A stretch of 64,000 bases of DNA from an uncultured Bacteriovoracaceae bacterium (GTDB lineage Bacteria > Bdellovibrionota > Bacteriovoracia > Bacteriovoracales > Bacteriovoracaceae), in contig CAKZUQ010000010.1 in assembly GCA_937923325.1 (NCBI GenBank), positions 1 to 64,000 of the forward strand, written 5' to 3'. The notes beneath the pieces are model-generated. The model ran no database searches, was not told where the DNA came from, and saw nothing but the letters and a program-made list of their open reading frames with translations. Positions within the stretch are counted from its first letter, which is position 1. Every line of letters starts with the position of its first letter. The position numbers and the translations under genes are program-made. Of this stretch, positions 297 through 61,318 are shown one piece after another.

Positions 297-330
297 AAAA
301 AGTGCTTCCACCATCCTCGTCGGATGGTGG
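297..330 (-). terminator. Intrinsic terminator of tmRNA, overlapping its CCA end
   Basis: On the minus strand a 9-bp perfect stem (322-330 with 308-316) with a 5-base loop is followed within 6 bases by a T run (complement of 297-301). The 5' arm of the stem is the CCACCA 3' end of the tmRNA plus three more bases. The terminator hairpin therefore buries the mature acceptor end until it is trimmed. Confidence 0.8.
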
Positions 331-697
331 AGCTGGTCGGAATCGAACCGACGTCCAAAGACTCATCCAGTAGAGAGCACTACGTGTGTAGTCGCATTAG
401 AGGAAGCGACGCCTGTGAGGGATTTATCAAACCCACAAAATCCGGTGATTTTATTTAAAAGGTTCTCCCGACTTTTCCTTTGCTAACTTTGATTTAGTAG
501 CTCTCAGCTTGAGCTGGTCACTTGCTTTTTGTTATTGGTGCAAGCCCCTCAGCGGACGCGGTAATCTAAAGAGATTAGGCAGCCATTGCGAATTCGTTGT
601 TTCCAACTAAGTTTGGGCGGCTTTTTACAAGGCCTGCCGACCAACCTTGACACGCACTCAATCCTTCCGTAGCCCCTGTCGAAACCAGTGCAGCCCC
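325..697 (-). ncRNA. ssrA: tmRNA (transfer-messenger RNA)
   Basis: This RNA rescues stalled ribosomes and tags the unfinished peptide for proteolysis, working with SmpB. The 5' end (697 downward) starts GGGGCUG, which pairs over seven positions (one G-U) with CAGCUCC before ACCA at the 3' end (325-327 is CCA). The T-arm, with GGTTCGATTCC, lies just inside the 3' end, and the conserved 5' segment GGTTTCGACAGGGG follows the acceptor stem. The tag frame is at 604-575: resume codon GGA preceded by TTAGTT, encoding GNNEFAMAA then TAA. A Gly-first tag resembles that of Bdellovibrio (from memory), and the hydrophobic MAA end suits ClpXP recognition. Length is 373 nt, normal for a one-piece tmRNA. 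An apparent ORF across 647-862 is only a reading through this RNA. Confidence 0.97.
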
Positions 698-14724: not shown

Positions 14725-15077
14725 TGGACTTAGTATTAATAAGTAAAGTTGTACACTCCTTTTATGACAAAGCAAAAAGAGATATCCTGATTGGTTATCA
14801 TTTTAGAGTGATCGAAAACTTTGATGAACATATTCCTAAGATTGTTAGTTTTTGGGAGCTTCAGATAAACAAAGAAATCACAAATAAAGACCACTTACCC
14901 TTCAATATCTTAAAAAAACATGCACCACTCTTAATAAATAAAGGTGAAATTTTTAGGTGGGAGCTTTTGTTTAAGCAAACTCTTGAGGAGTTTGAAGAAT
15001 TAACAGATAAAGATATTGAGGTATGGATGTCATTAGTAGACTTTTTTAAGCAGAGACTACTTACTTCACTTTCTTAG
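14721..15077 (+). CDS. Group III truncated haemoglobin
   Basis: 118 residues, the short 2-on-2 globin length. The pattern ISKVVHSFYDKAKRD, then HIPKIVSFWE, NILKKHAPL and FRWELLFKQTL matches group III truncated globins. His67 in KKHAPL is the probable proximal haem ligand, Phe44-Trp45 lie on the distal side, and Trp80 matches the family FxxW. Such globins bind O2 or NO and are often linked to nitrosative or microaerobic stress. The start overlaps the previous gene by ATGA, and the 3' end overlaps a convergent lipoprotein gene by 17 bases. Confidence 0.8.
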   Translation: MMDLVLISKVVHSFYDKAKRDILIGYHFRVIENFDEHIPKIVSFWELQINKEITNKDHLPFNILKKHAPLLINKGEIFRWELLFKQTLEEFEELTDKDIEVWMSLVDFFKQRLLTSLS

Positions 15078-15438
15078 CATTAAAAGCTTTTTGAACAAAT
15101 CTTTCAAGAATAGGTTCACCCGAGACATAGTCAAATGACCAATTCGAAGAGTGATAGCCATCAAAAGTCAGAGCACTTTCAAAGGCGTCTTTTGAGTTTC
15201 CGTAATAAAGAGCATTAAATTCAATAAGTTTTGCTTTGGCCTTATAGCCAACTAAACATTTAGGTCGATATTCATGGCAATTAACAAGTACGGTACCAAT
15301 ACGTGCAGGGACGATAAACTTGAAATCTTTATCTATTTTTGTCCCCATAGAAAGGATATCATCCTTAGTAAAGCTCGTTTCACTCTCGGTACAAGAAACG
15401 AAAAAAATTAATAGAAAAGTAAAAATAATTTCTTTCAT
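15061..15438 (-). CDS. Small lipoprotein, unknown function
   Basis: 125 residues. Signal MKEIIFTFLLIFFVSC with lipobox FVSC and lipidated Cys16. Two further Cys (VNCHEYRPKCLVG) could form a disulfide. The mature protein is mixed alpha/beta in composition without a recognised domain. The last 17 bases are antisense to the end of the globin gene. It lies 8 bases after the SDR stop on the same strand, in the direction SDR start, SDR stop, this gene, so it may be the last gene of a helicase-SDR-lipoprotein unit. Confidence 0.7.
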   Translation of the reverse strand: MKEIIFTFLLIFFVSCTESETSFTKDDILSMGTKIDKDFKFIVPARIGTVLVNCHEYRPKCLVGYKAKAKLIEFNALYYGNSKDAFESALTFDGYHSSNWSFDYVSGEPILERFVQKAFNAKKVK

Positions 15439-15446
15439 ACTAATAA

Positions 15447-16328
15447 TTATAAATTGGATGTGATGTTTTTCAAAGCTAATTCCATCGTAGGAAAGTTATA
15501 TTTAAACTTTGTTTCATTAAGTTTAACAGCTTTAACATCTTGATCATCAAAAATCATCTGAGCAACTTCTCCTTTTAACAAGGTCAAGGCAAACTTTGGA
15601 ACAGTCAATTTTGCAGGTTTATTAAGGAGCTTACTAAATATTGTAGTAAATTCTTTATTAGATACATTAAATCGACTTACAGCATTCAAAGTTGTTGCTA
15701 GCTCAGCATTAAAAATACACTCAATGTAAACATTTGCTAAGTCATCTACATGAATCCAACTTATCATCTGCTTTCCACTTCCAAGTGTTCCACCTAATCC
15801 TAGTTTAAATACAGGATAAAGTTCTTTGATCATTCCCCCACTAGCACCTAAGACGACAGATACTCTTACAATAGAAACTGTGTCAGCTATAGACTCAGCT
15901 GTAAGAGCAGCTTTTTCCCATTTTTCACATACATTTTTTAGAAAACCTGAAGAATAGATACCAATAGCAGAAGTTGATATAAAATTGGATAAATGAATAT
16001 TAGATTTTTTTAATTCTTTAATTATTGTTTCTGTAGCAACAATTCTAGAGTTATATATTTCTTTTTTTTGATTATCGGTCCATCTCTTTGCAGTTAAGCT
16101 CTCCCCAACAAGATTTATCACAACATCTAAGTCATTTAATTCTTTGGTATCAAAGGAGTCGTTGTACGATTTCCATTCAATGGCCACAACTTTACTATCA
16201 AAAGTTTTTAGGCATCTCTTTACATCTCTAGTTAAAATAAAGACCTGATGACCTTGGGAAATCAACTTTCGAACAATTACTCTACCAACAAAACCTGTCC
16301 CACCGCTTAATAAAATCTTCTTGCTCAT
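15447..16328 (-). CDS. TIGR01777 family SDR epimerase (YfcH-like)
   Basis: 293 residues from the chosen ATG at 16326-16328, where MSKKILLSGGTGFVGR opens the Rossmann fold (GGTGFVG). A longer reading to 16367 would add 13 residues inside the helicase gene and displace the glycine motif from the N terminus. DVVINLVGESL, TSAIGIYSS and SWIHVDDLANVY are typical of the family, and a DUF1731-like end follows. NAD(P)-dependent, substrate unknown. It starts one base after the helicase stop (TAA T ATG), so the two are cotranscribed. Confidence 0.88.
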   Translation of the reverse strand: MSKKILLSGGTGFVGRVIVRKLISQGHQVFILTRDVKRCLKTFDSKVVAIEWKSYNDSFDTKELNDLDVVINLVGESLTAKRWTDNQKKEIYNSRIVATETIIKELKKSNIHLSNFISTSAIGIYSSGFLKNVCEKWEKAALTAESIADTVSIVRVSVVLGASGGMIKELYPVFKLGLGGTLGSGKQMISWIHVDDLANVYIECIFNAELATTLNAVSRFNVSNKEFTTIFSKLLNKPAKLTVPKFALTLLKGEVAQMIFDDQDVKAVKLNETKFKYNFPTMELALKNITSNL

Positions 16329-56343: not shown

Positions 56344-58377
56344 ATGTTTGATTTAGATACATTAAACCCAGAACAAAAAAGAGCTGCAACAAGTGTTGAG
56401 GGCCCTCTTTTAATTCTAGCAGGAGCAGGCTCTGGAAAAACAAGAACAGTTACCTTTAGAATTGCCCATATGGTTAAGGATTTAAGAATAAATCCTAAAG
56501 AAATACTAGCAGTTAGCTTTACAAACAAAGCAGCAACAGAAATGCACGAAAGAGTTGGTAAGCTTTTAGGGCCCAAGCTCAAACGTGGCATTACGCTATG
56601 TACTTTTCATTCTTTGGCCATAAGAATTTTAAGAGAAGATATCTCAAAACTTGGTTATTCAAAAGATTTTACAATTTATGATTCTGCAGATCAGTTATCA
56701 ATTGTCAGAGAAGCATTAAAAAATTTCAAAATGGAAAAAGCATCATTTGATAAAAAGCAGATACTCTCAAGAATTGGATATTTAAAAAATAATGCCATCA
56801 CGGCTGAAGCTTTTAAAGACACTGAATTTTTTGATGATGAAAGTGACTATGATTTGGCCGTTGAATATGTTTATCACTACTACCAAGATAAATTGCAGTT
56901 CTACAATGCTGTTGACTTTGATGATATTTTATTTTTAGCGGTAAGACTTTTTAATGACTACCCTGAGGTTGCTGAAAAATACTCTAAAAGATACAAGTAT
57001 ATTATGGTTGATGAATATCAAGATACAAATGGTCTACAGTTCGATTTCGTACAAGGGCTAACTTCGACTCATCAAAACATATGTGTCGTTGGAGATGATG
57101 ATCAATCCATTTATGCATTTAGGGGCGCAGATTTATCCAACATTTTAAACTTTGAAAAACAGTATGAAGATACAAAAGTTATAAAACTAGAGCAAAACTA
57201 TAGATCAACGGCAAAAATCCTAGAACTCGCAAATGTTGTTATAAAAAAGAATAAAAAGAGAAAAGATAAGACAATGAGATCTACAAACTTTGGAGGTAAT
57301 CTTCCTGAGTTATGGGGATGTGCAAACACAGATCACGAAGCACAAATTGTAATAGATGAAATTATCAAAATTCAAAAAGAAGGTTTATTTCTTGGAGAAG
57401 TAGCTCTTTTATATAGAAGTAATACTCAAGTCCCCCCTTTTGAAGATCAACTAAGACTTGCTCAGATACCCTATACTATAATTGGTGGACAAAAGTTCTA
57501 TGAAAAAAAAGAAATTAAAGACTTAATTGCATACCTCAGCGTAATAAATAATACAAAAGATGAACTATCTTTAAGAAGAATTTTAAATGTTCCTAATAGA
57601 GGGATCGGAACTAAAACACTAAACAAGCTCTTAGACTTGGCTCAAGAAGAAAATACCTCACTTTTCAATATTATCAAAAAAAATCCTCTGGGTGATTCTA
57701 AACAAGGAATAGCACTAAGAGCATTTGTTATTATAATTGAGAGGTATCAAGATTTATTTAAAACGATGACCATAGTTCAAGGCTTAGCTTCATTGATTCA
57801 AGAGATTAACTATTTAGAATTCGTTGATAAAAGCTATGACAGTCCAAAGATTGCAAAAAGAAAAAGAGATGATGTTTCTAACTTTTTAATGTCTACAGAA
57901 AGATTCTATGATCGCTTTAAAGAAGATGCCACTCTACAGAACTACCTTGAAAGACTCCTATTAGCGGATGCAAGTGATAACAAAGATGATGATGGAATCT
58001 TAAAGAATGAAGTTCAACTAATGACTCTACATGCATCTAAAGGTCTTGAATTTGATATTGTATTTATGATTGGATGCGAAGAAGAACTTCTTCCACACAA
58101 GAATACGATTCAAGAAGGATCTGAAGTAGATGAAGAAAGAAGATTATTCTATGTAGGTGTAACAAGAGCTAAAAAGAGACTCTATATTACTCATGCTCAT
58201 GAAAGAAGAATTTATGGAAAAGATTTAAAACGATTTCCTTCAAGGTTTGTTATAGACGTTGAGGAGAATTACTTGGTTCCAAAAGACCGAACAGGCTTTG
58301 CACATATGACAGAAGAAGAAGAGAAAGAACATAAATCTGATTTCTTCAATGATTTATTAAGCTCACTCGATGATTAA
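56344..58377 (+). CDS. UvrD/PcrA/Rep-family DNA helicase
   Basis: 677 residues, near Rep and PcrA size. All SF1A motifs are present: LNPEQKRAAT (Q), AGAGSGKT (I), SFTNKAA (Ia), DEYQDTN (II), GDDDQSIYAFRGA (III), EQNYRST (IV), LMTLHASKGLEF (V) and YVGVTRAKKRL (VI). It is a 3'-5' helicase for replication restart and excision repair. UvrD, PcrA and Rep cannot be told apart from motifs alone; the short C terminus resembles Rep. The ribosome site is weak (GAGAAA). Confidence 0.93.
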   Translation: MFDLDTLNPEQKRAATSVEGPLLILAGAGSGKTRTVTFRIAHMVKDLRINPKEILAVSFTNKAATEMHERVGKLLGPKLKRGITLCTFHSLAIRILREDISKLGYSKDFTIYDSADQLSIVREALKNFKMEKASFDKKQILSRIGYLKNNAITAEAFKDTEFFDDESDYDLAVEYVYHYYQDKLQFYNAVDFDDILFLAVRLFNDYPEVAEKYSKRYKYIMVDEYQDTNGLQFDFVQGLTSTHQNICVVGDDDQSIYAFRGADLSNILNFEKQYEDTKVIKLEQNYRSTAKILELANVVIKKNKKRKDKTMRSTNFGGNLPELWGCANTDHEAQIVIDEIIKIQKEGLFLGEVALLYRSNTQVPPFEDQLRLAQIPYTIIGGQKFYEKKEIKDLIAYLSVINNTKDELSLRRILNVPNRGIGTKTLNKLLDLAQEENTSLFNIIKKNPLGDSKQGIALRAFVIIIERYQDLFKTMTIVQGLASLIQEINYLEFVDKSYDSPKIAKRKRDDVSNFLMSTERFYDRFKEDATLQNYLERLLLADASDNKDDDGILKNEVQLMTLHASKGLEFDIVFMIGCEEELLPHKNTIQEGSEVDEERRLFYVGVTRAKKRLYITHAHERRIYGKDLKRFPSRFVIDVEENYLVPKDRTGFAHMTEEEEKEHKSDFFNDLLSSLDD

Positions 58378-58459: not shown

Positions 58460-58915
58460 TCACCACTTATATTTTTTATTAATAGGTATTTTTATTGCTT
58501 TGTGAAATTGATCCTTAGGTAGTGCAATATCTATCGTCCCTCTGCATTCGAAATCACTTTCAACATATTCTATGTTCAAAGTAAGCTTCATACCTTCGTC
58601 GAAAAGCCATTGTTCATGTAATAAATCGCTCTTCAAATAGTTATTTATTTGATCTTTAATTTACTCTACAGTTGGAACCTTCTCGTTTTCTATACAGTAT
58701 TTTTGAATTTGATCATCTAATCCTTTAAAACCTGAATGCTTCAACTCCTTAACATCTCCAACCCAAGACTCAGGAGAGCTAGATGGATCATACAACTCAA
58801 CAGCTTTCTCTACCTTCTTAACACGTTCAGCTGTATCAGCATATTTGCTACTAGAAGTTTTGACTTCCGTATGTAAACAAGAAGATAAGATGATTAATGT
58901 AATAAGAATTGTCAT
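58460..58915 (-). pseudogene. Lipoprotein gene interrupted by an in-frame stop
   Basis: The first part (58915-58661) encodes 84 residues: signal MTILITLIILSSC with lipobox LSSC and Cys13, then a charged helical chain ending KVPTVE. After TAA (58663-58661) the same frame continues without a break for 66 protein-like residues (IKDQINNYLKSDLLHEQWLF through FECRGTIDIALPKDQFHK) to TGA at 58460. The downstream part has no start codon near its beginning and no ribosome site, so one codon appears to have become a stop. Either the gene is truncated at 84 residues, or the stop is read through. No family recognised. Confidence 0.6.
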
Positions 58916-59060
58916 ATCTCAATTTATCCTAATATTCGCTCTAAATCCAAAAAGCTGAACACGAAATTAATATTTTTCATATATACCATACAAACTACTT
59001 CTTTACTTTATAGTTGAAGAGACACTACCTCAAGAAATGAATAGACCATCATTCGTTACT

Positions 59061-59080
59061 CTATAGTAGATCTACTATAG
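59061..59080. promoter_or_regulatory. Perfect 20-bp palindrome
   Basis: CTATAGTAGATCTACTATAG is its own reverse complement, with no mismatch over 20 bp. It sits alone in the 58,916-59,240 gap, which otherwise holds no gene. Such a gapless dyad suits a dimeric regulator site. It lies about 145 bp upstream of the lipoprotein start on that strand. Confidence 0.5.
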
Positions 59081-59247
59081 TATATTTTCAATTCAAAACT
59101 CAAATAACGCACAAAGACCGACTACAAGTCCTACATGTAAAGAGTCCAAATATTTCACTAATTGATTTTGTACAATATCAACTATTTATAAAGGGAGTAA
59201 TCGTTTACAACTGATATAAATGCTTTAAGTTACCATTACAAAGAAAT

Positions 59248-59271
59248 AAAAAAAGGGCCATCCTTGGCCCT
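59248..59271 (-). terminator. Strong terminator with an AGGA tetraloop
   Basis: On the minus strand AGGGCCA (59271-59265) and TGGCCCT (59260-59254) form a 7-bp stem closing AGGA, followed by seven T. It ends whatever is transcribed leftward from 59,600, either the candidate small RNA or the 3' UTR of the leucine operon. Confidence 0.88.
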
Positions 59272-59520
59272 ATACACTTTTAAAGTGAATCCATCCTTGG
59301 ATATAACTTTTCTCAACCTTAATACTTAATTTTTTAGTTTATACTTTTGTGTGTATATACCTAGTTCTCAAGATTGATCAAATTTACATCCTCCAAACTT
59401 ACCTCTCTCAAATAGGTTTGAAAAAATTTGAAAAAACCATCCTTTTGAAAAGTTATTAATTTGAAAATAAAATCCATCTTATATTCATAACTTTCCATTA
59501 ACTTATTCTTAATGTATCGA
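59248..59520 (-). ncRNA. Candidate CsrA/RsmA-sequestering small RNA
   Basis: The roughly 270-nt minus-strand stretch has no coding frame of note but carries four [A/G]GGATG motifs (CAAGGATGG near 59259-59267 and 59292-59300, GGAGGATG at 59394-59387, AAAGGATG at 59446-59438) plus two further GGA. Two are presented as AGGA loops on perfect stems: ATCCA/TGGAT (59302-59289) and the terminator stem. A third, GGAGGA, lies in a loop closed by AAGUUU/AAAUUU. CARGGAUG in hairpin loops is the known CsrA recognition sequence, and repeats of it ended by an intrinsic terminator define CsrB/RsmY-type RNAs. A TTGACA promoter lies at the right place. The alternative is that this is the long 3' UTR of the leucine operon. 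CsrA itself is not in the window. Confidence 0.45.
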
Positions 59521-59527
59521 TATATTT

Positions 59528-59556
59528 ATTGTGAAATATTCAACTTCCTATGTCAA
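59528..59556 (-). promoter_or_regulatory. Promoter for the candidate small RNA
   Basis: Minus-strand TTGACA (59556-59551), a 17-base spacer and CACAAT (59533-59528), a perfect -35 with a 4/6 -10. Predicted start near 59521. It lies 45 bp beyond the end of the last leucine-operon gene. Confidence 0.45.
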
Positions 59557-59601
59557 AAAATAAATACGAATTAAACAAAATAATTGTTAACTAAACTAAT
59601 A

Positions 59602-60402
59602 CTAACTATTATCTTTACTTGTAGAAATAATCTTTTTAAGTAAATTAAAATGCTCAGGAGTTCTTTGAGTTATACCTTGATAACTTGCAAGCAAGTCAAG
59701 AGTACTGTACAAATCATTGTTTCGAGCATGAACTATAGATCTTTTGGCCATAGAGTTTGCAACTGCTGAATTAGAACAAATTTGATCAGCTATATTTCTG
59801 ACTTTTTCTAACAGTTCGTCTGATTCAAAAAGACTACTGACAAGATTCATACTCAAAGCTTCTTCACTATTATATATCTTTGCTGTTAGGGTCATCTCCA
59901 TGGCCTTAGAGTAACCCACAACTCTTTGAAGAAAATATGTTCCACCATCACCAGGAATTAAGCCTAATTTTGTAAATGTCTCTCCAAATTTAGCTTTTGT
60001 ACTAGCAATTCTAATATCACACATACAGGCTAAATCTAAACCAGCTCCGATAGCAGCTCCATTTACCATAGCAATCGTTGGCGTGGACAAGCTATTGAAA
60101 CATACTGGTATCTTTTGAATACCTCTTTTATATCTAAGCCTTAATTCATTAGATTCACCAGCAAACATACCTTCTTTATTAAGCATTTGCTTAATATCTC
60201 CGCCAGCGCAAAAGTGCTTTCCTTCACCCGTAATGATAATACAATGTATCGAATCATCTTCATCGGCAAAATAAAGTAAATCGACTAAATCTTGAATCAT
60301 TTCTACAGTGAAAGCATTACTCGCCTGAGGTCTATTTAAAGTGATCCATAACTGATTTTCTAAAGTTGAGATTTTAAGATCATTTAATTTTCTTGAATAC
60401 AT
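59602..60402 (-). CDS. Enoyl-CoA hydratase/isomerase family protein
   Basis: 266 residues of crotonase fold. GEGKHFCAGGDIKQM forms the oxyanion-hole region, NGAAIGAGLDLACMCDIR the second, and FGETFTKLGLIPGDGGTYF carries the position of one catalytic Glu (FGET) with GDGG in place of the second. Last gene of the leucine-degradation run, one base after the HMG-CoA lyase stop. The exact step is not evident: it may serve isovalerate, another branched acyl-CoA or general beta-oxidation. Confidence 0.85.
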   Translation of the reverse strand: MYSRKLNDLKISTLENQLWITLNRPQASNAFTVEMIQDLVDLLYFADEDDSIHCIIITGEGKHFCAGGDIKQMLNKEGMFAGESNELRLRYKRGIQKIPVCFNSLSTPTIAMVNGAAIGAGLDLACMCDIRIASTKAKFGETFTKLGLIPGDGGTYFLQRVVGYSKAMEMTLTAKIYNSEEALSMNLVSSLFESDELLEKVRNIADQICSNSAVANSMAKRSIVHARNNDLYSTLDLLASYQGITQRTPEHFNLLKKIISTSKDNS

Positions 60403-60403
60403 G

Positions 60404-61318
60404 CTATGCCTTATTTTTAAAGTAAGATGATAAAAACTTAGAGGGAGTCTCTTTATTAATAACCCCCAAAATAAACCGCGAGGCTTCTGAAATTTTATTA
60501 AGCTTTACCCCAGTTTTAATCCCCAAAGATTCAAATAAATAAATTAAATCTTCAGTTGCGACATTTCCTGTCGCACCCTTTGCATAAGGACATCCCCCCA
60601 ACCCTCCTGAGGAAGAATCAAAAGTAGTAATTCCATGCTTAAGACTTACTAATATATTTGCTATGGCCATACCTCTGGTGTCATGAAAGTGCATCGCAAT
60701 TTTAGATTTATCTAAATGCTGTAGGACAAAACTTAAATATTCATCTACTTGCTTAGGAGTACCAACTCCGATTGTATCTCCAATTGAAATTTGATAAACA
60801 CCTAAGTCCTGGAACCTTAAACATATGGCCAAAAGTTCTTCTTTAGACATATGACCTTGATATGGACAACCAAATGCTGTTGAGACATATGCTCGAACTT
60901 TAATGTTGTCCTGATGTGCAAGAGTTGCAATCTCAGACATAACTTTAAAGCTCTCATCGACAGTCATATTAATATTTTTTTTTGTAAATTCATTACTTGT
61001 TGCTGAGAAAAGTGCAATTTCCTCTACTCCAGCTTCTTTTGCTAGGTTATATCCTTTTAAATTAGGAACAAGGCAAGGAAGATTAATATCTATTAATTCA
61101 TCATTGGCGAGCTTAAAAAGATCAGATGCATTTGCCATTTGTGGAACAGCTTTCGGACTAACAAAGCTTGTGACTTCGATAGTTTTTAAACCTGCTTTAG
61201 AAAGTAAACGAATATATTTAACTTTATCCTCTAAAGAAACATTAACCTTTTCATTCTGAAGTCCATCTCGTGGCCCAACTTCAACAATATTAACTTCTTT
61301 TGGAAGATCATTAAACAT
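60404..61318 (-). CDS. liuE: Hydroxymethylglutaryl-CoA lyase
   Basis: 304 residues, TIM-barrel. It splits HMG-CoA to acetyl-CoA and acetoacetate, the last step of leucine breakdown. VEVGPRDGLQNEK near the N terminus (Arg for catalysis), MHFHDTRGMA (metal His pair) and the signature GGLGGCPYAKGATGNVATED with the catalytic Cys are intact. It starts 2 bases after the biotin-carrier stop and ends 1 base before the next ATG, a tightly packed operon. Confidence 0.95.
   Translation of the reverse strand: MFNDLPKEVNIVEVGPRDGLQNEKVNVSLEDKVKYIRLLSKAGLKTIEVTSFVSPKAVPQMANASDLFKLANDELIDINLPCLVPNLKGYNLAKEAGVEEIALFSATSNEFTKKNINMTVDESFKVMSEIATLAHQDNIKVRAYVSTAFGCPYQGHMSKEELLAICLRFQDLGVYQISIGDTIGVGTPKQVDEYLSFVLQHLDKSKIAMHFHDTRGMAIANILVSLKHGITTFDSSSGGLGGCPYAKGATGNVATEDLIYLFESLGIKTGVKLNKISEASRFILGVINKETPSKFLSSYFKNKA

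What the first reader, a model, noticed from the sequence alone, without database searches (positions are those of the whole stretch)
59248..59520. Candidate CsrB/RsmY-like RNA with AGGA loops, minus strand
Seen: on the minus strand, four [A/G]GGATG motifs lie within about 190 nt; two form AGGA tetraloops on perfect stems (59289-59302 and the terminator stem 59254-59271), and one lies in a longer loop. The element starts at a TTGACA...CACAAT promoter and ends in a strong terminator. Established: CsrA binds ARGGAUG in hairpin loops, and CsrB/RsmY RNAs are arrays of such loops. Inference: this is a CsrA sponge in a Bdellovibrionota genome. The terminator hairpin itself presenting the motif is a striking economy.
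Basis: partly seen in the sequence, partly recalled or inferred. Interest (0 to 1): 0.75.

Follow-up and report, generated by a model that had tools for sequence, protein, structure and literature searches.

The report
CsrA-site terminator outliving its gene
A pair of RNA hairpins built like binding sites for the bacterial regulator CsrA, one of them the transcription terminator itself, is kept at the same place across many relatives of predatory bacteria although the gene in front of it looks broken here, which points to an RNA that soaks up or senses CsrA outside the group where such RNAs are best known.

Summary
In detail: four AGGATG in 185 nt on the minus strand, two in hairpin loops, one of these the terminator. 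CsrA binding is well supported by comparison; "CsrB/RsmY-like sponge" only partly. In relatives (order of a Bacteriovoracaceae MAG) the two hairpins are the 3' end of a Bor-like lipoprotein gene between an enoyl-CoA hydratase and convergent uvrD. Anchored on the hydratase, tandem A-N-GGA hairpins occur sense in 71 of 107 regions (0 antisense; 0.45 expected from shuffles). With loop content left free the loops are ANGGAN: A,G,G,A change 0,1,0,1 times on a 64-leaf tree, the two N 18 and 8 times, the specificity described for CsrA/RsmE. csrA and fliW are present in 14 of 14 relatives tested. In the window the lipoprotein frame is broken while promoter and hairpins remain, so here the element rides on an apparently noncoding RNA of about 275 nt. 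Best reading: a conserved terminator-borne double CsrA site, possibly titrating CsrA (inferred). New variant of a known kind; closest is RsmU, a 3'UTR-derived RsmA-binding RNA. There are no expression or binding data.

The parts
59528..59556 (-). promoter-like TTGACA-17-CACAAT, start of the transcription unit (start site about 59521, inferred)
   Evidence: 10 of 12 matches; not above chance by itself; a strict promoter pattern lies at the like place in 5 of the 9 relatives looked at (G001, G003, G004, G007, G032; not G002, G006, G008, G037)
59325..59450 (-). probable remnant of the Bor-like lipoprotein reading frame (2 in-frame stops)
   Evidence: tblastn with the G001 lipoprotein, E 0.062, 38% over 45 columns; profile match to the frame with stops as X, 5.1 bits, E 0.0012; weak but collinear
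59438..59443 (-). extra AGGATG motif, not found in the nearest relative
59387..59392 (-). extra AGGATG motif, not found in the nearest relative
59289..59302 (-). first conserved CsrA-type hairpin, CC-AAGGAU-GG core (hexaloop, or AGGA loop if the A-U pair closes)
   Evidence: relatives:
59275..59287 (-). small A-T rich hairpin between the two sites
   Evidence: also folded in the nearest relative, L102
59254..59271 (-). second conserved CsrA-type hairpin GGCC-AAGGAU-GGCC, which is the intrinsic terminator
59246..59253 (-). U-rich tail of the terminator
59246..59308 (-). double-hairpin module as matched by covariance model R1 (61.5 bits; the window is one of its 25 training rows)
59602..60402 (-). 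upstream neighbour: enoyl-CoA hydratase (PF00378), last gene of the liu-like operon
56344..58377 (+). convergent downstream neighbour: UvrD helicase (PF00580, PF13361)

Best explanation
A conserved, terminator-borne pair of CsrA-binding hairpins at the 3' end of a short transcript. Each hairpin shows an ANGGAN hexaloop; the two lie at a spacing one CsrA dimer can bridge, so one dimer probably clamps the 3' end of the RNA. In most relatives with the locus this is the 3' end of a Bor-like lipoprotein gene; in the window organism the reading frame is broken and the same promoter and 3' end would make a roughly 275-nt apparently noncoding RNA. Shown: sequence, position, orientation and evolutionary pattern of the sites; presence of CsrA in relatives. 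Inferred: that CsrA binds (about 0.85), that the RNA is made (about 0.85), that its main effect is in trans, titrating CsrA alongside the protein antagonist FliW (about 0.45), rather than on its own mRNA (about 0.35).
For: Anchored on the hydratase, not on the element: 106 genomes plus the window, tandem A-N-GGA hairpins within 70 nt in 71 of 107 sense, 0 of 107 antisense, 0.45 expected from shuffles; 70 of 91 where a lipoprotein is detected; 0 of 13 where neither lipoprotein nor uvrD is. Best hairpin with a 6-nt loop of any content, GC-rich stem and T-rich tail: found in 73 of 107, ANGGAN in 67 of 73. GGCC-N6-GGCC plus T-rich tail in 68 of 107: loop letters A 68/68, N free, G 67/68, G 68/68, A 67/68, N free; least changes on a lipoprotein tree 0,18,1,0,1,8 (64 leaves); upstream CC-N6-GG 0,12,0,0,0,4 (53 leaves). 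ANGGAN with conserved A and GGA and variable N is the RsmE/CsrA site (PMC7652899, passages). GGA-GGA distance 17-49 nt, 71 of 71 inside the 10-63 nt bridging range (range from PMC7652899). Model R1: 58 of 129 genomes with a match at E<1e-8, one such match each, 34 of the 58 not in its training set, all 58 beside the same genes. Reversed-pattern control 0 in 129 genomes. Other 6-nt-loop terminators: 6 of 53 ANGGAN, but 4 of the 6 are this locus with another stem and 2 were fetched by the model, leaving 0 of 47. csrA 14 of 14, fliW 14 of 14. Element without a detected lipoprotein: the window (tandem), and G081 (terminator hairpin kept; match starts 85 nt after the hydratase).
Against: No expression, binding or mutant data. 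The first hairpin is weak alone (24 of 200 shuffles fold as well) and in two other clades the minimum-energy fold pairs it otherwise (L125, L130). Covariation is thin: 3 pairs with changes on both sides, reached by 355 of 500 shuffles and by structures slid by +1 to +3 columns; cells with double changes and covariation score did beat all 500. 36 of 107 regions lack the tandem. The genomes are related, so counts are not independent. Two conserved sites are few for a sponge. The window's own csrA cannot be checked.
Confidence: 0.62

Rival explanations
1. Cis element: CsrA bound to the terminal hairpins protects the 3' end or tunes decay of its own (lipoprotein) mRNA, with no effect on other messages. 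It shares the binding step with the best explanation.
For: In relatives the element follows the Bor-like lipoprotein gene (70 of 91 with tandem); most such 3' ends hold only 3 to 5 GGA in the last 110 nt.
Against: The element persists where the lipoprotein is broken (window) or not detected (G081); lipoproteins drift (mostly 20-48% identity to the query ones) while loops stay.
Confidence: 0.33
2. Plain terminator whose loop is conserved for another reason (another RNA-binding protein, or pairing with ribosomal or small RNA).
For: The second hairpin is the terminator; AAGGAU resembles a ribosome-binding site; expression is not known.
Against: Loop positions 2 and 6 change 18 and 8 times while A and GGA hold, which pairing to a fixed partner would hardly allow; the upstream, non-terminator hairpin shows the same pattern; 0 of 47 other 6-nt-loop terminators have such loops (after the exclusions told there).
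Confidence: 0.1
3. A true CsrB/RsmY-type stand-alone sRNA gene.
For: In the window: promoter-like site, no intact ORF, four AGGATG, terminator.
Against: In relatives it is the 3' end of a protein gene; two of the four motifs are absent from the nearest relative; no Rfam CsrB/RsmY match.
Confidence: 0.12

Closest known systems
RsmU (sRX061), Xanthomonas campestris, PMC7694677 (passages seen)
   Same: [quoted passage not shown] the long form ends in an intrinsic terminator
   Different: Gammaproteobacterium; reported as conserved in Xanthomonas only; its short form lacks the terminator (where its GGA sites lie was not compared here); no loss of the host reading frame described in the passages seen
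flaA mRNA of Campylobacter jejuni, PMC4894983 (passages seen)
   Same: Two adjacent ANGGA loops in an mRNA that titrates CsrA together with FliW, in a bacterium without CsrB-type sRNAs
   Different: Sites are in the 5' UTR, one over the ribosome-binding site, and repress flagellin; here they are at the 3' end and on the terminator
CsrB/CsrC and RsmX/Y/Z sRNAs (PMC7652899, passages seen)
   Same: GGA-loop hairpins, possible CsrA sequestration
   Different: Many more sites (22 GGA in E. coli CsrB), separate sRNA genes, Gammaproteobacteria; no covariance-model match here
merRNA of Bdellovibrio bacteriovorus, PMC3627812 (passages seen)
   Same: Proposed sponge RNA in the same phylum
   Different: Proposed to store c-di-GMP through a riboswitch, not to bind CsrA

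Membership tests
CsrA/RsmE binding site (ANGGAN hexaloop hairpin) | conserved A and GGA, two variable N, in a six-nt loop closed by a stem | tested here: met
   68 terminator and 54 upstream hairpins with loop content left free (stem type chosen after seeing the element); 67 of 73 with any GC-rich stem
CsrA/RsmE binding site (ANGGAN hexaloop hairpin) | two sites 10-63 nt apart, bridgeable by one dimer | tested here: met
CsrA/RsmE binding site (ANGGAN hexaloop hairpin) | bound by CsrA | not testable with these tools
   gel shift or CLIP needed
CsrB/RsmY sRNA family | matches a curated covariance model | tested here: not met
   only tmRNA at gathering score in the window; none of 8 matches up to E 10 in 59200-59620 is of this kind
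CsrB/RsmY sRNA family | stand-alone noncoding gene with own promoter | tested here: inconclusive
   window: no intact ORF, promoter-like site; relatives: lipoprotein gene
CsrB/RsmY sRNA family | synthesis depends on BarA-UvrY or its kin | not tested
   feature from PMC7652899
3'-UTR-derived CsrA-binding RNA (RsmU kind) | lies in the 3' UTR of a protein gene and bears CsrA-type sites | tested here: met
   by position and sequence in relatives; transcription and processing not shown
3'-UTR-derived CsrA-binding RNA (RsmU kind) | sequesters CsrA in vivo | not testable with these tools
   co-immunoprecipitation and mutants needed

The most novel reading that the evidence does not exclude
An mRNA-to-sRNA conversion caught in the act: an order-wide bifunctional lipoprotein mRNA carries a terminator-borne CsrA clamp that titrates CsrA together with FliW; in the window lineage the coding half has died, the promoter and the 3' clamp were kept, two further AGGATG sites arose in the dead frame, and the locus is becoming a CsrB-like RNA by convergent evolution outside Gammaproteobacteria.
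Probability: 0.35. Interest if true: 0.8.

Novelty: new variant of a known kind. Interest (0 to 1): 0.62.

Why it matters
CsrA-antagonising sRNAs are described for Gammaproteobacteria, where FliW is absent, and a 2020 review says it remains to be determined whether FliW and sRNAs act together on CsrA in any species (PMC7652899, passages). csrA and fliW were found in 14 of 14 relatives, and 9 of these 14 carry the tandem at this locus (G001-G004, G006-G008, G010, G012), so that question becomes directly testable here. The locus also offers a case of a terminator doing double duty as a regulator's binding site, and of a 3' UTR outliving its gene. In the held library (subscription journals mostly missing) the titles and abstract starts listed by searches for CsrA+Bdellovibrio (10 of 10 papers), Bacteriovorax+small RNA (2 of 2), CsrA+terminator hairpin (5 of 5) and CsrA+lipoprotein+sequester (10 of 29) describe nothing like it.

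Tried and rejected
Rejected: Rfam membership. Rejected: the four-motif cluster as one conserved array; the nearest relative G001 lacks the two upstream AGGATG. Rejected: that the 84-aa ORF at 58661-58915 is the moved lipoprotein: no Pfam match and 12 bits in the lipoprotein profile, about what an ORF at 15064-15495 also scores. Considered: a phylum-wide single element; GGCCANGGAHGGCC occurs in 183 of 368 genomes of the phylum, but in the Bdellovibrio-like genomes fetched it sits in another locus. Considered: a phage origin; one scan of viral contigs gave 3 stretches, none with a match to the neighbour genes. The promoter scan alone is no evidence. The first alignment A1 (29 rows) misplaced four rows with a longer linker (L124, L004, L099, L113); they were left out of A2 and the model (25 rows). 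Three of their genomes (G003, G004, G029) are in the count; G065 (L113) has no hydratase match and appears only. Training rows were chosen by a pattern that fixes CC..GG and most of the loop, so their invariance there proves nothing; some searches were made to get round that, but the hairpin rule has a clause for CC..GG stems, and the stems were chosen, after seeing the element. The tree rests on a short lipoprotein and holds 64 of the 68, and 53 of the 54, regions.

Full report
Check of the observation. The minus strand of 59248-59520 holds four AGGATG within 185 nt; 0 of 2000 simulated strands of like dinucleotide make-up have such a cluster. Two sit in hairpin loops, 59289-59302 and 59254-59271, the latter being the only terminator-like site in 58500-60500. 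The 279-nt stretch folds better than 200 of 200 shuffles. The promoter-like site is present, though such sites are no commoner than in shuffles.

Relatives. The window's own genome is not held. The flanking enoyl-CoA hydratase (59602-60402) brought in 80 loci, the nearest from Bacteriovoracaceae/Halobacteriovoraceae MAGs (best 68% identity). In L001, L002, L003, L004, L007 and L027 the hydratase is followed by a TTGACA, a short lipoprotein ORF, and then two hairpins CCA[A/C]GGA[A/T]GG, the second with a GGCC stem and a T-rich tail; convergent uvrD follows in all six. The lipoprotein resembles the Bor family (PF06291; of three tested one is above the gathering score and two just below).

How widespread. 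The pattern CCAMGGAWGG-N5..35-CCAMGGAWGG gave 34 sites in 32 of 129 genomes of the order of G001 (the genome of L001) and none for the reversed pattern. Of the 30 sites returned as loci, 24 lie beside the same genes; the other six are L103, L107, L108, L109, L122 and L123. The four sites without new loci lie in L004, L007, L027 and L012, also after the hydratase. A covariance model of 25 rows gave a match at E<=0.01 in 108 of 129 genomes (the weak ones may well be chance) and at E<1e-8 in 58, one such match each; 24 of the 58 supplied training rows and match by construction, 34 did not. All 58 lie downstream of a detected lipoprotein with the hydratase or HMG-CoA lyase upstream.

An anchor that does not use the element. 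The hydratase has a match at E<=1e-60 in 106 of 129 genomes. For these 106 plus the window I took the stretch from the hydratase to uvrD (or a fixed length) and looked for A-N-GGA loops on stems. Tandem hairpins within 70 nt: 71 of 107 sense, 0 of 107 antisense, 0.45 expected from dinucleotide shuffles; with a lipoprotein detected 70 of 91; with lipoprotein and uvrD 63 of 80 tandem and 71 of 80 with at least one (antisense 6, shuffles 17.65 for at least one); with neither 0 of 13. The genomes are kin, so these are not independent counts.

What is selected. The best hairpin per region with a 6-nt loop of any content, a GC-rich stem and a T-rich tail was found in 73 of 107 regions and has an ANGGAN loop in 67 of the 73. 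GGCC-N6-GGCC followed by a T-rich tail occurs in 68 of 107: loop position 1 is A in 68, position 3 G in 67, position 4 G in 68, position 5 A in 67, while position 2 is A41/G14/T10/C3 and position 6 T59/A8/C1; the one departure is a hairpin in G064 that seems unrelated. On a tree of the lipoproteins the least numbers of changes are 0,18,1,0,1,8 (64 leaves), and 0,12,0,0,0,4 (53 leaves) for the upstream hairpin. This is the ANGGAN hexaloop of the RsmE complexes, with contacts to the A and the GGA and variable N (PMC7652899, passages). Sites are 17-49 nt apart (71 of 71), inside the 10-63 nt that a CsrA dimer can bridge (PMC7652899). In 634,512 bases of these loci and the window, 53 other terminator-like hairpins with 6-nt loops were counted; 6 have ANGGAN loops, of which L160, L183, L195 and L231 are this same locus with other stems and L190 and L193 had been fetched by the model, leaving 0 of 47. 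Stem covariation is modest. Some other sites of the kind in the order look like ordinary CsrA targets: in L103, L107 and L123 they follow sigma-54-like promoters in leaders after groEL, and in L122 they end a few nt before a start codon (the promoter type and groEL are named from recall of their sequences).

CsrA and FliW. One CsrA and one FliW match were found in each of 14 relative genomes, in all 14 on one contig within a few hundred bases of each other; the CsrA core is nearly identical in all 14. Nine of these 14 have the tandem; G005 and G009 have none, G011 and G013 a single hairpin, and G014 is outside the set. No csrA core motif was seen in the window itself.

The window's own version. 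Between promoter and hairpins no lipoprotein ORF remains: the best collinear match has two stops and E 0.062; with stops as X the frame scores 5.1 bits, so the kinship is probable, not proven. From promoter to the first loop motif is 258 nt against 397 nt in G001. Of 107 regions the window is the only one with a tandem and no detected lipoprotein; G081 keeps the terminator hairpin, its model match starting 85 nt after the hydratase, again with no detected lipoprotein. So the RNA element can outlive the protein. The two extra AGGATG lie in the dead frame and are absent from G001.

Mechanism. A CsrA dimer on two loops at the very 3' end is the best-supported step (inferred from sequence and evolution). 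Trans titration fits the survival without the ORF and the precedents of flaA mRNA plus FliW in Campylobacter (PMC4894983, passages) and of RsmU from a 3' UTR in Xanthomonas (PMC7694677, passages). A cis role in the lipoprotein mRNA fits most relatives equally well and is the main rival. I put binding at about 0.85, titration at about 0.45.

Names. That G134 is B. bacteriovorus HD100 is recalled from its contig length (3,782,950 bases).

Noticed in passing
L235-L250 and L253 (Bdellovibrio-like genomes): In 17 of the 20 loci fetched for GGCCANGGAHGGCC, that hairpin is preceded by a second ANGGAN hexaloop hairpin (loops ACGGAC, ATGGAT, ACGGAT, ATGGAC, AAGGAC, ACGGAA); in 16 of the 17 a 37-42 aa hydrophobic ORF follows (none found in L241). 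Looks like a CsrA-controlled leader of a membrane miniprotein.
   Followed up: partly
L103:1501-1529, L107:1501-1530, L123:1501-1529: Double CsrA-type hairpins right after sigma-54-like promoters downstream of groEL, in leaders of other genes (promoter type and groEL named from recall).
   Followed up: partly
L255:4722-4771: A viral contig carries CCCAAGGATGGG...GGGCCACGGATGGCCC with a T-rich tail just before a tRNA-like stretch: possible phage-borne CsrA decoy.
   Followed up: no
L256:2945-2974: A second viral contig has a double ANGGA hairpin between two ORFs, upstream of a start codon.
   Followed up: no
G162 (phylum search): 49 matches to GGCCANGGAHGGCC in one 2.6-Mb genome, the four listed all GGCCATGGATGGCC: probably a dispersed repeat.
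   Followed up: no
window 325-697: tmRNA with tag GNNEFAMAA.
   Followed up: no
window 58661-58915: 84-aa ORF with a lipobox-like start between the element and uvrD, no Pfam match; in L002, L004 and L007 uvrD lies too close to the terminator to leave room for it.
   Followed up: partly
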